A stretch of DNA of 58,168 bases from Myxococcales bacterium (GTDB taxonomy: Bacteria; UBA10199; 2-02-FULL-44-16; JAAZCA01): assembly GCA_012513515.1 (NCBI GenBank), contig JAAZCA010000006.1, forward strand, positions 1-58,168, in the 5' to 3' direction. The first letter of the stretch is position 1, and each line of letters opens with the position of its first letter. The notes below the pieces were generated by a model. The model saw only the letters and a program-made list of their open reading frames with translations, was not told the DNA's origin and did no database searches. Made by a program: the position numbers and the translations under genes. Shown here piece after piece: positions 46,315-51,026 of the stretch.

Positions 46315-46668
46315 ATGAAAAAACTTATATTTGCTATTACGATGGCGCTTTTCTTTTTTATCCTTTTGAACTTCATCTATTGCAATCTTGATGAAGCGAC
46401 TTTCGGCTATGCCCTTGTTATGAAATTCAGGATACCCTACATCTTGAGCGTCCAGTCTGTTCCGATTCCGATAGGTTTCGTTCTGCTCTCCGCATTTTGC
46501 TCAGGAATGGTTGTGATAGCGATGATCGAGGCTCTCCCATCCTTTTATAAAACGCTTGAGCTTCGTGCGAAAAACAAGCGCATACGCCAGCTTGAAAGAG
46601 AGCTTTCGGTAGTGAGACAGATATCAGAAAAGAAGGATTCGGAATCAGCCCCTAAATCCCTTTCGTGA
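46315..46668 (+). CDS. LapA-domain membrane protein
   Basis: A 117-residue protein with two membrane helices (about 4-24 and 48-75) and a C-terminal coiled coil (LELRAKNKRIRQLERELSVVRQ). This layout and the position after a HU/HIT set fit the LapA/DUF1049 family (lipopolysaccharide assembly protein A, partner of LapB). GGGGGA precedes the ATG. No LapB TPR gene is adjacent. The end overlaps the convergent orphan gene by 24 bases. Confidence 0.78.
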   Translation: MKKLIFAITMALFFFILLNFIYCNLDEATFGYALVMKFRIPYILSVQSVPIPIGFVLLSAFCSGMVVIAMIEALPSFYKTLELRAKNKRIRQLERELSVVRQISEKKDSESAPKSLS

Positions 46669-47406
46669 TCTCTTAATCTTTTTTAGTTCCACCTTCGCAG
46701 CGCCGGAGTCGTGCTGATGGTCAGCTTTTTTTGCAGCTTGAAGTTTTTCAAATTCCCTGGCCTTTGCTTCAACCTTTGAGGATGGCCTGGATGTGAATGA
46801 GGATGCCTGACGATTTTCCTGAATCGACGCTATTTGGCTTTCCAGCTTTTGGACTTCCGCTTCCAGTTCGGAGCCCTTTTGCTCCATCATATTGTCGACC
46901 AACAGCTCCAGGTTTCTAAGCGGCGATGGGTTGCCGTCGATGAGGGCCTTTATTCGGAGCTTCGCTTCTTTCTTTATGAGGATGAGCCCATCCGACTGTC
47001 TGAAGTCGGCTTTGAGTTTTTTGAAGAAGGTGTCGATATTGTCTATCGAGAGGTTACAGGATGGGATGATCGAGGCGTTTACCAGGTCATCCAGCCCCTC
47101 GTCCGTATATTTCCCCTCGTTTATGAGCATCGCGTCGAAGGGGATGTGTATCTCCCCCGTAAAACGATATTTTTCCAAGGAGAGGAATTCATCCTTGCTA
47201 AGTATATAGACGTCCTCTTCCTGTTTGTATGGTTCAAAGGCCGATTTCCACGTTGCGATGTCGAATCGGGCGGTGTCAACAAATCCGCTATACCATAGGG
47301 TATCAAGGTCTAGCTCTGTGTAATATACGTGCTCCCCATCGGCAGTTTTTTCGAGCTGCTCCCAGAGATATTCCATCACGCCGCCGCCATCTAGAGTCAT
47401 CGCCAT
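46645..47406 (-). CDS. Hypothetical protein with charged coiled-coil tail
   Basis: A 253-residue protein I do not recognise. The N-terminal ~170 residues are mixed alpha/beta and rich in aspartate and tyrosine (YYTELDLDTLWYSGFVDTARFD, IHIPFDAMLINEGKYTDEGLDDL). Residues ~170-253 form a coiled coil ending in a basic tail (KVELKKIKRSRKGF). There is no signal peptide or membrane helix. GGAGGT lies 9 bases before the ATG. The 3' end overlaps lapA by 24 bases, and it marks the left end of the accessory stretch with the Fic gene and the coiled-coil trio. Confidence 0.72.
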   Translation of the reverse strand: MAMTLDGGGVMEYLWEQLEKTADGEHVYYTELDLDTLWYSGFVDTARFDIATWKSAFEPYKQEEDVYILSKDEFLSLEKYRFTGEIHIPFDAMLINEGKYTDEGLDDLVNASIIPSCNLSIDNIDTFFKKLKADFRQSDGLILIKKEAKLRIKALIDGNPSPLRNLELLVDNMMEQKGSELEAEVQKLESQIASIQENRQASSFTSRPSSKVEAKAREFEKLQAAKKADHQHDSGAAKVELKKIKRSRKGFRG

Positions 47407-47470: not shown

Positions 47471-47806
47471 AGTAACCTCCGAAAAATCAGCAAATTCAGG
47501 GGGGGGTCTCTAAAAGCTATCCACTTGATTCTTCATCTTGATCTTCATCTCCATCTTCATCTTAATCCTGATCTTGATCTTAACCTTAATAACGATATTT
47601 TCGAATATAAACTAGTTTTACAAAATGCTGATCAGAGATCAGCGATCAGGATTCGACGATCACTTTTTCTTTTGACGGGGATTCCCGCTTGCCCCGCGTT
47701 AGCGGCGGCTTAAAACCGCGGGAATGACGGCGTGATTGTCATCCCTGAATGGTCAATCGTCCATGGTCGAAATTATTGCTGCAGCTAGCTTTTCAGAGGT
47801 TACTTA
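47471..47806 (+). mobile_element. MITE-like dispersed repeat, full copy B
   Basis: About 336 bp with terminal inverted repeats AGTAACCTCCGAAAA (left) and TTTTCAGAGGTTACTT (right), and no coding capacity. Internal parts in order: AATCAGCAAATTCAGGG; CTCTAAAAGCTAT; GATTCTT followed by nine hexamers of the ATCTTN type; TTCGAATATAAAC; the palindrome GCTGATCagaGATCAGC; TTTTTCTTTTGACGGGGATTCCCGC; a GC-rich palindromic core ending GCGGGAATGACGGCG; and a TCATCC..GAATGGTCAATCG tail. Copies C and D share all the internal parts. It fills most of the gap from 47407 to 47887. Confidence 0.82.
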
Positions 47807-47826
47807 AAGAATAAAACGATAATACG

Positions 47827-47885
47827 TTGACGGATTATTAGCGAAACGATATAAAAACGCTAATAAGGGGGATTTCTTATTAGCG
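47827..47885 (+). promoter_or_regulatory. Promoter and triple operator of the Fic gene
   Basis: A sigma-70 promoter, TTGACG (47827-47832), a 17-base spacer and TATAAA (47850-47855). It is overlaid by three copies of a 9-mer: TTATTAGCG at 47835-47843 (inside the spacer), its reverse complement CGCTAATAA at 47858-47866 (just after the -10) and TTATTAGCG at 47877-47885 (just before the ATG). The copies are perfect. The layout suggests repression by a protein binding an inverted pair plus a third site. The Fic protein's own C-terminal helix-turn-helix is a candidate. Confidence 0.72.
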
Positions 47886-47887
47886 CT

Positions 47888-49027
47888 ATGTCAAAACAAT
47901 CATCGGGTCATTTTATTCGTTGCAAGGAAGGGTATCAGGCATTCATTCCAAACCAGCTGCCCCCTGAAATTACTTGGAGCACCAAGCTAACCAAAGCCCT
48001 TTCTGATGCAGATAGACTTATAGGAAAACTTGCGGGCGAAGGAAAAAGACTGCCAAACCCTCATCTTTTGATGAGACCTTTCTTAAGGCGTGAAGCTGTT
48101 CTTTCCAGCCGTATCGAAGGAACGCAATCGACTCTTGGTGAGCTACTTGCAAAAGAAGCTGGTGCAAACGTTGAAAGAAGTCCTGACGATCTTAGAGAGG
48201 TGGGAAATTATGTTACCGCTATCGAGTATGGAATAAAGAGATTAAAGACCCTGCCCCTATCTCTTCGCCTTGTTCGTGAACTTCATGAAAAATTGATGAA
48301 AGGTGTTAGAGGAAGAACCGCAACACCCGGAGAATTCAGGCGCAGTCAGAACTGGATAGGAATCCCCGGAAGTACTATATCGAATGCTACTTATATTCCT
48401 CCACCTCCAAATAAACTTATGTCATGTCTCGGCGATTGGGAGAAGTTCCTGCATGATAGAACCATCCCTCCTCTTGTTCAGGTTGCAATGATCCATTATC
48501 AGTTCGAAGCCATCCATCCGTTTCTTGATGGCAATGGTAGAGTTGGGCGTTTACTAATAACGCTTTTATTGATCGAACGAGATATTTTACCAACACCGCT
48601 TCTCTATTTAAGCGCATTCTTTGAAGCCACAAGGCGTGATTATTATGACCTTCTCCTTGATGTGAGCTTAAAGGGTAACTGGGAGAAATGGCTGGAATAT
48701 TTCTTTAATGGGGTTGCGAGGCAGTCTGAGGACGCTTTGAGCCGTGCAGAAAGAATAAATAAGAAGCTGGATACGTGGAAGGATCAGATAACAGCGAAGA
48801 CCCTGCTAAAAGTTATCGATATGATCGCGGCCAATCCATTCGTTACGGTCAAAGGCGTTGCGGCCAAGTTAAAGGTTGCCTTTACCACTGCCCAACGAGC
48901 GGTTGATAAACTTAAAGACCTCGGCATCTTGAAGCAAATGGATAAAGCCAAGCGCGACCGTGTCTATTGCGCCAAAGATATATTCGATATTCTTGAAGAA
49001 CCTGCGAAGCTTGATTCTTCATCTTAA
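47888..49027 (+). CDS. Fic family protein (class II, AMPylase type) with winged helix
   Basis: A 379-residue Fic protein. Such enzymes usually transfer AMP from ATP to protein hydroxyls. The Fic motif HPFLDGNGRVGR is intact at 210-221. The inhibitory motif S-x-x-x-E-G lies N-terminal (S73 to G78), which makes it a class II, self-inhibited member. An N-terminal Fic_N-like domain precedes it, and a winged helix-turn-helix lies at about 305-370 (NPFVTVKGVAAKLKVAFTTAQRAVDKLKDLGIL). The last six codons (KLDSSS) and the stop lie in the start of repeat copy C. The gene looks AT-richer than its neighbours, suggesting transfer. No partner antitoxin is adjacent. Confidence 0.92.
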   Translation: MSKQSSGHFIRCKEGYQAFIPNQLPPEITWSTKLTKALSDADRLIGKLAGEGKRLPNPHLLMRPFLRREAVLSSRIEGTQSTLGELLAKEAGANVERSPDDLREVGNYVTAIEYGIKRLKTLPLSLRLVRELHEKLMKGVRGRTATPGEFRRSQNWIGIPGSTISNATYIPPPPNKLMSCLGDWEKFLHDRTIPPLVQVAMIHYQFEAIHPFLDGNGRVGRLLITLLLIERDILPTPLLYLSAFFEATRRDYYDLLLDVSLKGNWEKWLEYFFNGVARQSEDALSRAERINKKLDTWKDQITAKTLLKVIDMIAANPFVTVKGVAAKLKVAFTTAQRAVDKLKDLGILKQMDKAKRDRVYCAKDIFDILEEPAKLDSSS

Positions 49028-49300
49028 TCTTCATCTTAATCTTAATCCTGATCTTGATCTTAATCTTAATAAGGATGTTTTCGAATATAAACTAGTCTTA
49101 CAAAATGCTGATCAAAGATCAGCGATCAGGATTTGACGATCACTTTTTCTTTTGACGGGGATTCCCGCTTGCCCCGCGCGGTAGCGGTGGTTTGCTCCGC
49201 GTTAGCGGCGGCCTAAAACCGCGAGAATGACAGCGTGGTCGTCATCCCCGAATGGTCAATCGTACATGGTCGAAGTTATTGTTGCAGCTAGCTTTTCAGA
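49008..49300 (+). mobile_element. MITE-like dispersed repeat, left-truncated copy C
   Basis: It begins at CTTGATTCTTC, inside the last codons of the Fic gene, so the left terminal repeat and the first ~60 bases are missing. The hexamer tract has eight units. The GC-rich core has an internal duplication (two GCGGTAGCGG-like parts) compared with copy B. The right end keeps GCTAGCTTTTCAGA and then diverges. It accounts for most of the 342-base gap between the Fic gene and the coiled-coil operon. Confidence 0.8.
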
Positions 49301-49314
49301 TATTCCTTATAAAA

Positions 49315-49347
49315 AATAAAATAAAAGGGCCGGCTTTTGCCGACCCT
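49315..49347 (-). terminator. Terminator of the coiled-coil operon
   Basis: A 9-bp stem with one C/A mismatch (AGGGCCGGC / GCCGACCCT, loop TTTT) at 49326-49347. On the minus strand it is followed by TTTTATTTTATTTTTT. It lies about 22 bases after the stop of the last gene of the trio. Confidence 0.8.
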
Positions 49348-49369: not shown

Positions 49370-49873
49370 TCATCGTGCGGTCGGAGTTCCTCTTGACCTT
49401 TCATTTCTCATTGGGTTCTGTCCCCTATAGTTGCAAAACATGGCACGAAGAGCGGTCTTGCTTATCGCCGACTGCTTGGCCGTGAGTTTTTGCTCCACGA
49501 TAGCCGCTTCCAGCTCTTTGCCTTTGAGCTCCTGAGCACGAAGCTCGCGCTTTTGCTCCAGCCCTATCTTGAACATGCTCTCCTGCATCGCCAACTTTTT
49601 CTCATTATTTTCGAGGGCATTTAGCTGGTCTTCCATGGAGATCTTTTCCATCTCCTTGTTATGGTTGAGGGCGCTTAGCTGCATCTCCTTTTGTATCTCA
49701 ATTATCTCACCCTGGTAAACATACCCGGCGATTCCCTCGCACATTTGGAAGACTGAGGAGGAGATGCTTGAGATAGCGTTGCCGGCGGTCATAAGGCCTT
49801 GTATTGCTGATCCGCCGCCACCACCACCACCACCACCACCACCACCACTATCACCAACGGGAGCAGTGCTCAT
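49370..49873 (-). CDS. Unknown coiled-coil protein, third gene of the trio
   Basis: A 167-residue protein. After MSTAPVGDS comes a run of 12 glycines (10-21), nine of them from consecutive identical GGT codons. Next is a small-residue-rich, weakly hydrophobic segment (AIQGLMTAGNAISSISSSVFQMCEGIAGYV, about 23-52). A long amphipathic helix of about 90 residues rich in E, K, Q, L and M follows (QKEMQLSALNHNKEMEKIS, ENNEKKLAMQ, KRELRAQELKGKELEAAI). The tail is basic (NPMRNERSRGT). GAGGAA precedes the ATG. I recognise no family. Confidence 0.7.
   Translation of the reverse strand: MSTAPVGDSGGGGGGGGGGGGSAIQGLMTAGNAISSISSSVFQMCEGIAGYVYQGEIIEIQKEMQLSALNHNKEMEKISMEDQLNALENNEKKLAMQESMFKIGLEQKRELRAQELKGKELEAAIVEQKLTAKQSAISKTALRAMFCNYRGQNPMRNERSRGTPTAR
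49812..49848 (-). repeat. Trinucleotide microsatellite encoding polyglycine
   Basis: Ten CCA triplets preceded by two CCG on the plus strand; on the coding strand, nine GGT codons then GGC and GGA codons. Slippage would change the glycine count without breaking the frame. Confidence 0.85.
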
Positions 49874-49890
49874 ATGTTCCTCGATTCCCT

Positions 49891-49923
49891 ATGTTAATAA
49901 AATGTTAATAAAATGTTAATAAA
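49891..49923. repeat. Three perfect 11-bp tandem repeats
   Basis: ATGTTAATAAA three times in a row, between the second and third genes of the coiled-coil operon. It covers the stop codon of the second gene (49916-49918). On the coding strand the unit is TTTATTAACAT, so each unit supplies an A/U-rich, unstructured spacer with TAA stops. Confidence 0.88.
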
Positions 49924-50407
49924 TCCTGCTCGGATAGCCGTAATTCCAGGAACGCCTTGCGCTGAAGGTGTTGGCAACGGAAAGGACTCTTGCCCTTTCG
50001 TTTTTGCCATTCTCCTGAACCCTGGCTATGGCAATCCTTGCCGAATTTTCAAGCTTCATCATCCTCTGCTCATGATCTATCTGTGCCTGATGCATATTCT
50101 GCTGTGCGTATATGGCTGTTTCCTGGACGTCGAGCTGCCTCATTGCGACATGTTGTTTATAGCTGGCTATGGTGTTAACCGATTCATAGTATGCCTCGGC
50201 GACGGCCCTGTTGGCGTCGATCTGCTTCGCTTGAAGGCCATAGTTGAAGCCAGCTGCCATCATATTTCCAATGGAGTCCAATGCCTGCATAGCTGCATTG
50301 ATCTTAAGGGCTTTGTCTTTTTGCTTGTTATCAGTTAGCTCCATGGTTGTCTGAGTTGGGTTTGATGTATTATTGTAACTGATCTGTTGAGGGATGAATG
50401 GTAGCAT
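49916..50407 (-). CDS. Unknown coiled-coil protein, second gene of the trio
   Basis: A 163-residue protein. The polar N-terminus (about 1-30, LPFIPQQISYNNTSN) leads to a small-residue-rich stretch INAAMQALDSIGNMMAAGFNYGLQ. A long helix rich in A, Q, E and M follows (about 58-145: QIDANRAVAEAYYES, RQLDVQETAIYAQQN, EQRMMKLENSARIAIARVQ). It ends with an aromatic/basic tail SARRSWNYGYPSRIY. AAGGAGG precedes the ATG, and only 10 bases separate it from the gene upstream. No signal peptide, no family recognised. The layout is the same as in its two neighbours. Confidence 0.7.
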   Translation of the reverse strand: MLPFIPQQISYNNTSNPTQTTMELTDNKQKDKALKINAAMQALDSIGNMMAAGFNYGLQAKQIDANRAVAEAYYESVNTIASYKQHVAMRQLDVQETAIYAQQNMHQAQIDHEQRMMKLENSARIAIARVQENGKNERARVLSVANTFSARRSWNYGYPSRIY

Positions 50408-50417
50408 AATTTCCTCC

Positions 50418-50825
50418 TTAAGAATTGTTCACTGGTTTGCCTGCTAAATATACCGCTTTTGGCGCCGATGATCCGTCAACTTTCTTGTTTTTGCCCGTTT
50501 CCAGCCCCCTCAGCTCTTCACGCTTTTTCGCATTTTCATATTTCATCTGTTTCGTGGAGAGGTAGTCGAGGGCGATAGTCGAGCCCATCTGTGCGCGAAG
50601 TTTGGCGGCGCTGCGTTCCTGTGCTGCCTCATTGGCTCGCTTCTGGTATAGGGCGCGGTTGCGGGCATCGACTTGCATCTGCTCCTGCATTTTCTTTTGC
50701 TCAGCAGCAGCTTCCTTCGCCTCATATTGACTAGCTATACCAAGTCCAGTGCTTATAATGGTACATGCAGCGCCTATGATCGCAACGACAATTACGCAGC
50801 TAATTAATCCTAAAACTCCCAACAT
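50418..50825 (-). CDS. Unknown membrane-anchored coiled-coil protein, first gene of the trio
   Basis: A 135-residue protein with a strongly hydrophobic N-terminal segment (about 2-32: LGVLGLISCVIVVAIIGAAC, then TIISTGLGI). A long charged helix rich in A, E, Q and K follows (QYEAKEAAAEQKKMQEQMQ, RNRALYQKRANEAAQERSA). It ends in a short polar tail (KAVYLAGKPVNNS). The start at 50825 is fixed by GGAGGT 5 bases upstream; the frame is open further up but without a site. The upstream 200 bases (to mutS) are AT-rich with TATAAT-like boxes but no convincing -35. I recognise no family. Confidence 0.7.
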   Translation of the reverse strand: MLGVLGLISCVIVVAIIGAACTIISTGLGIASQYEAKEAAAEQKKMQEQMQVDARNRALYQKRANEAAQERSAAKLRAQMGSTIALDYLSTKQMKYENAKKREELRGLETGKNKKVDGSSAPKAVYLAGKPVNNS

Positions 50826-51026
50826 AGGAACCTCCACTTCTCTCGTCCTAGTTATCGGTATCCGGTGAATCCATAGTTGCGTATCCCAGAAAATTTTTAT
50901 CATTATATAGTTTTTTCAGTGCATTATAATAATCTTTTAAAATTAATATGTTATCTCTTTATTCAACTGCTTAGAAAGTTTTCTATCCGCTTGATCATCG
51001 GATAAAGGCGTGCTACCCCGTCCAAT

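What the first reader, a model, noticed from the sequence alone, without database searches (positions are those of the whole stretch)
49370..50825. Operon of three unknown proteins with the same small-residue-then-coiled-coil layout
All three genes have strong ribosome-binding sites, one shared terminator and no relatives I can name. Each protein has a polar, glycine-rich or membrane-spanning start, a small-residue-rich hydrophobic patch, a 70-90-residue Q/A/E/K-rich helix and a short aromatic or basic tail. Phage DNA-ejection (pilot) proteins have a similar general look, so a membrane-piercing or filament-forming assembly is one idea. This is inference from layout only.
Basis: partly seen in the sequence, partly recalled or inferred. 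Interest (0 to 1): 0.75.

Follow-up and report, generated by a model that had tools for sequence, protein, structure and literature searches.

The report
Secretion-system helper genes in uncultured bacteria
The three small unknown proteins are related to one another, belong with a fourth gene to an operon kept across an uncultured bacterial class, and share their genetic switch with that class's type III secretion machine, so they are probably accessory or exported parts of that machine rather than phage proteins.

Summary
Three minus-strand genes (A 49370-49873, B 49916-50407, C 50418-50825) have good ribosome-binding sites, a shared terminator and no named relatives. The trio is conserved next to mutS in related genera. 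A, B and C are one paralogous family (hhalign 94-97% for A-B and A-C; reversed and shuffled controls under 2%), and most members carry a C-terminal GxP tail. C alone has a membrane segment. A and B do not, and no heptad periodicity exceeds shuffles. A fourth gene, D (46645-47406), belongs to the operon (C-B-A-D in relatives); here a Fic gene flanked by direct repeats separates it. D occurs in 39 of 46 genomes of the class and 0 of 339 outside.

The decisive find is upstream of C: GCAACT-N16-CCGATAA, a sigma28/FliA-like promoter present in 11 of 11 relatives. It occurs 1-24 times per genome in 41 of 46 class genomes and at background level elsewhere. In this genome it also precedes two type III secretion operons, one of which encodes a FliA-family sigma factor. 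The phage-pilot idea is not supported. Best reading: a lineage-specific accessory, probably exported, module of a type III system with no recognised secretin. Export and assembly are untested.

The parts
50418..50825 (-). gene C (135 aa): N-terminal membrane segment, helix, tail ...YLAGKPVNNS; first gene of the operon
   Evidence: orthologs in 11 genomes, start fixed by homology and by promoter position
49916..50407 (-). gene B (163 aa): polar start, small-residue patch, long helix (27-153), tail WNYGYP
49370..49873 (-). gene A (167 aa): 12-glycine run, small-residue patch, helix, tail RGTP; homologous to B and C
46645..47406 (-). gene D (253 aa): conserved fourth operon member, downstream of A (or of B or C paralogs) in relatives; class-restricted
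   Evidence: confident AlphaFold model (pLDDT 87), no fold match
50852..50880 (-). sigma28/FliA-like promoter GCAACT-N16-CCGATAA; motif ends 27 nt before the C start codon
49326..49347 (-). intrinsic terminator-like hairpin after gene A
47536..47816 (.). left copy of the direct repeat flanking the Fic gene that separates D from the trio
   Evidence: 163 nt at 94% plus 128 nt at 87% identity to the right copy
47888..49027 (+). Fic/DOC-family gene inserted between A and D in this genome only (not part of the module)
   Evidence: PF13784, PF02661; absent between A and D in the relatives G001, G002, G003 and G005
49016..49319 (.). right copy of the direct repeat flanking the Fic gene

Best explanation
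[quoted passage not shown] A FliA/sigma28-type sigma factor encoded inside a T3SS operon most likely transcribes C-B-A(-D) from GCAACT-N16-CCGATAA, together with the T3SS operons (needle-like protein, TPR protein, SctJ; SctI-like, SctL, SctN, SctQ, SctR, SctS, SctT) and candidate effectors. A, B and C are diverged paralogs: C has an N-terminal membrane segment, while A and B are soluble long-helix proteins. I propose that they are late T3SS products that assemble at the distal or membrane end of the machine, with C in a membrane and A and B packing as helices, and that D is their dedicated partner. Shown: homology, operon, conservation, promoter sharing, T3SS presence. Inferred: that this sigma factor reads the promoter, and export, location, stoichiometry and D's role.
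For: Promoter conserved upstream of C in 11 of 11 relatives. In this genome 7 sites, where about 0.05 are expected by base count; three are the trio and the two T3SS-cluster operons. 85 of 89 distinct sites have an ORF start within 140 nt. Outside the class 11 sites in 147 genomes, equal to the reversed-pattern control. T3SS parts identified: SctV above cut-off; SctN and SctR above cut-off; SctJ, SctQ, SctL, SctT, two SycD-like TPR proteins and a FliA-family sigma factor by strong but below-cut-off matches. SctV/FlhA family in 44 of 46 genomes, SctJ/FliF family in 40 of 46. A-B-C homology. D in 39 of 46 class genomes, 0 of 339 outside. C is the only one of A, B and C with a strong membrane segment.
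Against: Neither export nor physical association with the T3SS can be tested here. The trio and D are not encoded inside the T3SS cluster in any genome examined. C's membrane segment at the very N-terminus is unusual for a type III substrate and could mean an ordinary inner-membrane protein. Candidate translocator-like proteins with SycD-like chaperones already sit in the T3SS cluster. 7 of 46 genomes lack a detectable D although most have SctV. In deep clades the exact promoter is missing upstream of many D copies (19 of 37 have it within 3 kb at one mismatch or fewer). Regulon membership does not prove a shared machine: the regulon also holds lipoprotein-like and unrelated genes.
Confidence: 0.55

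Rival explanations
1. The trio and D are T3SS effectors (toxins or host manipulators) rather than structural parts, delivered into a target cell; the many tandem paralogs in some genomes reflect an arms race with hosts or prey.
For: Fast divergence (28-47% amino-acid identity between genera); copy-number expansion in G014 and G009; the same promoter precedes other effector-like genes in G001.
Against: Near-universal conservation of D across a class at a conserved chromosomal position is more typical of a machine part; there is no catalytic motif or enzyme fold; effectors rarely come as three homologs plus a fixed partner.
Confidence: 0.2
2. The operon encodes an inner-membrane or cytoplasmic assembly, chaperone or regulatory complex for the T3SS that is never exported: C is the anchor, A and B helical linkers, D a docking protein.
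For: C has a signal-anchor-like N-terminus; D ends in a conserved basic tail (LKKIKRSRKGFRG) and is a confident alpha/beta fold; the operon is separate from the apparatus genes.
Against: Sequence variability and paralog turnover are high for an internal scaffold; A and B begin with polar, glycine-rich disordered ends like the T3SS-cluster needle-like protein.
Confidence: 0.22
3. Domesticated phage DNA-ejection (pilot or internal virion) proteins forming a helical membrane conduit.
For: General layout; weak hits of single members to an internal virion protein profile (phrog_15746, E 0.00035 for C and 0.0049 for one A ortholog) and to phiX174 H (E 0.17).
Against: Hits are not reproduced across orthologs; no phage record matches D or B; conserved chromosomal synteny; T3SS promoter.
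Confidence: 0.03

Closest known systems
Non-flagellar type III secretion systems, 'Myxo' group / needleless T3SS* of Myxococcus xanthus (Abby and Rocha 2012, PMC3459982; Herrou et al. 2025, PMC12075869)
   Same: Core export apparatus without a recognised T3SS secretin or PF09392 needle above cut-off; deltaproteobacterial-type lineage.
   Different: Here the T3SS cluster encodes a FliA-type sigma factor, FliG/FliM-like C-ring proteins, a needle-like protein and SycD-like chaperones; the Myxo systems are reported to lack FliG, needle and translocon. The trio and D have no counterpart named in the passages I read.
T3SS translocon proteins (SctE, SctB; IpaB/YopB and YopD type)
   Same: Membrane-inserting helical proteins expressed with the T3SS and thought to act at its distal end.
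   Different: No homology above cut-off (one C ortholog scores 17 bits against a 37-bit cut-off for SctB); no adjacent SycD-like chaperone; C has one N-terminal segment.
FliA/sigma28 flagellar late promoters (consensus TAAA-N15-GCCGATAA, from general knowledge)
   Same: -10 element CCGATAA; FliA-family sigma factor present; controls late genes of a type III machine.
   Different: -35 element is GCAACT rather than TAAA; most genomes of the class show only the non-flagellar SctV.
Phage DNA pilot proteins (phiX174 H, T7-type internal virion proteins)
   Same: Small-residue patch followed by a long helix.
   Different: No reproducible sequence relation and no phage context.

Membership tests
Component of the type III secretion regulon of this class | Shares the dedicated sigma28-like promoter with T3SS operons | tested here: met
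Component of the type III secretion regulon of this class | Host genome carries a non-flagellar T3SS | tested here: met
   SctV above TIGR01399 cut-off; SctN and SctR above cut-off, SctS above cut-off but scoring higher as FliQ, SctJ/Q/L/T below cut-off; YscJ_FliF family
Component of the type III secretion regulon of this class | Exported by or assembled on the T3SS | not testable with these tools
   needs secretion assay or proteomics
T3SS translocon (SctE/SctB) | Homology to SctE or SctB profiles | tested here: not met
   only sub-threshold matches of single members
T3SS translocon (SctE/SctB) | Membrane-inserting segment | tested here: met
   C only, 11 of 11 orthologs with 19-residue hydropathy 1.7-2.8
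T3SS translocon (SctE/SctB) | Co-encoded SycD/LcrH chaperone | tested here: not met
   the partner gene D is not a TPR protein; SycD-like genes lie in the T3SS cluster
Phage DNA-ejection (pilot/internal virion) proteins | Homology to phage families | tested here: not met
Phage DNA-ejection (pilot/internal virion) proteins | Phage structural gene neighbourhood | tested here: not met
   mutS on one side; D beside HIT/LapA/SppA/S1 genes across the class
Secretin-less 'Myxo'-type T3SS | No T3SS secretin | tested here: inconclusive
   0 of 46 genomes over the TIGR02516 cut-off; lower-scoring secretins exist, and one of the two in this genome lies in a pilus-like operon
Secretin-less 'Myxo'-type T3SS | No needle subunit SctF | tested here: inconclusive
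   0 of 46 over the PF09392 cut-off, but a needle-like family sits upstream of SctJ
Coiled-coil proteins in the strict sense | Heptad hydrophobic periodicity | tested here: not met
   no better than shuffles in A, B and C of the window

The most novel reading that the evidence does not exclude
C, B, A and D form a previously unknown kind of distal or membrane-spanning helical assembly (a translocon or conduit substitute) for a type III system with no recognised secretin or translocon, built from three homologous subunits and a dedicated partner, and universal to one uncultured bacterial class.
Probability: 0.27. Interest if true: 0.82.

Novelty: new variant of a known kind. Interest (0 to 1): 0.62.

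Why it matters
The operon is a marker for a whole uncultured class that carries a type III secretion system under its own sigma28-type regulon. The 13-base promoter is specific enough to list that regulon, including candidate effectors and accessory parts, directly from genomes. If the trio and D substitute for the missing distal parts, they show how an early-branching, secretin-poor type III machine could reach a target cell, a question left open by the needleless system of Myxococcus.

Tried and rejected
Phage pilot proteins: rejected. Homology of D to A, B or C: none. Homology of the T3SS needle-like family to A, B or C: none. Paralogs in deep clades: linked to C only weakly through the membrane segment (61.6%). 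Fold of D: no PDB match below E 0.03; the best hits are EF-hand proteins with TM-scores near 0.2, not meaningful. B model: one long helix with poor overall confidence, not searched. The GxP tail as a general export tag: only 8 of 85 first ORFs in the regulon carry it in the last 28 residues, mostly C orthologs, so it marks the family rather than the regulon. A dedicated T3SS secretin: none over cut-off; the second secretin of this genome lies in an ExeA/PilM-like operon. Papers on the class's secretion system: none found; the name UBA10199 was only my guess for the phylum and was not confirmed.

Full report
What is there. Three minus-strand genes lie between a Fic gene and mutS: A (49370-49873), B (49916-50407) and C (50418-50825). 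Ribosome-binding sites are good, a terminator-like hairpin follows A (49347-49326), and no Pfam, PHROG or NCBIfam family passes a curated cut-off. Codon-position differences against the nearest relative show constraint on the protein frames.

They are a set. Orthologs of the trio occur in the same order and divergent from mutS in related genera. Profile-profile comparison gives 97.3% for A-B and 93.6% for A-C (B-C 35.7%), while reversed and shuffled controls give under 2%. Most members end in a tail with the core GxP, often YxYGxP. Only C has a membrane segment. The helix is predicted, but a heptad pattern is not supported.

There is a fourth gene. In relatives the operon is C-B-A-D, where D corresponds to window 46645-47406. 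In this genome a Fic gene flanked by closely similar direct repeats (87-94%) lies between A and D. D is found in 39 of 46 genomes of the class and in none of 339 genomes outside. In distant families of the class D follows other small proteins, often tandem copies, with a small-residue hydrophobic start and a helix; their homology to A-C is only weakly supported. D lies beside the same HIT/LapA/SppA/S1 block in several families, so the locus is old and chromosomal. AlphaFold gives D a confident fold with no convincing PDB match.

The key link. Upstream of C in 11 of 11 genomes lies GCAACT-N16-CCGATAA, whose second half is the -10 element of FliA/sigma28 promoters. The pattern occurs 1-24 times in 41 of 46 class genomes, with two reversed-pattern matches in all. 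In 147 genomes outside the class 11 matches occur, the same as the reversed control there. Of 89 distinct sites in fetched DNA, 85 have an ORF start within 140 nt downstream. In this genome the seven sites precede the trio, two T3SS operons and four small or unknown genes. In relatives they precede SctV, the needle-like/TPR/SctJ operon, a translocator-like gene followed by a SycD-like chaperone gene, lytic transglycosylase-like genes and effector-like genes. Upstream of D, 19 of 37 loci carry the site at one mismatch or fewer, against none for the reversed pattern.

The machine. G000:C17 encodes SctN and SctR over cut-off, an SctS homolog that scores slightly higher as FliQ, SctT, SctQ/FliN-like, SctL, SctJ, two SycD-like TPR proteins and a FliA-family sigma factor, with FliM- and FliG-like proteins; SctV is on another contig. 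No genome of the class has a secretin over the T3SS cut-off or a needle over the PF09392 cut-off, although a needle-like family lies upstream of SctJ. This recalls the secretin-less 'Myxo' systems (PMC3459982) and the needleless T3SS* of Myxococcus (PMC12075869), but with a sigma factor, FliG-like protein and needle-like gene that those accounts do not describe. The tree placement was not tested.

How it most likely works. Shown: shared ancestry of A, B and C; the operon with D; class restriction; a promoter shared with the T3SS. Inferred: the T3SS-encoded sigma factor reads this promoter; C inserts in a membrane; A and B are helical subunits; the products act at, and probably leave through, the T3SS; D is their dedicated partner. 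Rivals are secreted effectors and a non-exported accessory complex. Phage ejection proteins are effectively excluded.

Taxonomy. The nearest named contig, JABGOS010000083.1, a 'Deltaproteobacteria' MAG, has the same length as G002:C63 and carries the same trio and D. The class itself was not named by any tool.

Noticed in passing
window 47536-49319: A Fic/DOC-family gene is flanked by direct repeats (163 nt at 94% and 128 nt at 87% identity) and separates the trio from D only in this genome; looks like a recent insertion.
   Followed up: partly
L245 (G000:C39 near 23727): A 73-aa regulon protein carries TTYSYGQP near its C-terminus, the same tail type as A, B and C, and FDPAAINEG, which resembles the PFDxxxINEG motif of D.
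   Followed up: no
L217, L242, L248, L213, L216 (upstream of comEC in G000 and G001): A conserved protein of about 212-216 aa (LPLDHRxxF) starts just after the sigma28-like promoter in at least four genomes; function unknown.
   Followed up: no
L173:15900-16781 and L175:5343-6218: FliA-family sigma factor genes sit inside T3SS operons, next to FliG- and FliM-like genes; a mixed flagellar/injectisome gene set.
   Followed up: partly
L246, L260: Soluble lytic transglycosylase-like genes directly behind the T3SS-type promoter.
   Followed up: no
L173:5708-6775: Translocator-like 355-aa protein with a canonical EF hand at its N-terminus (PF13202), next to a SycD-like chaperone gene.
   Followed up: no
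L143, L144, L146 (G014, G009): Several D paralogs per genome, each near further small helix proteins or HMG-lyase-like and radical-SAM-like genes.
   Followed up: no
window 49800-49850: Twelve consecutive glycine codons in A form an in-frame trinucleotide repeat that could vary in length.
   Followed up: no
L173:19124-19663 and family: Needle-like family (C-terminal TKSNxLxxxHxAxMxMIxKF) upstream of SctJ across the class, below the PF09392 cut-off.
   Followed up: partly
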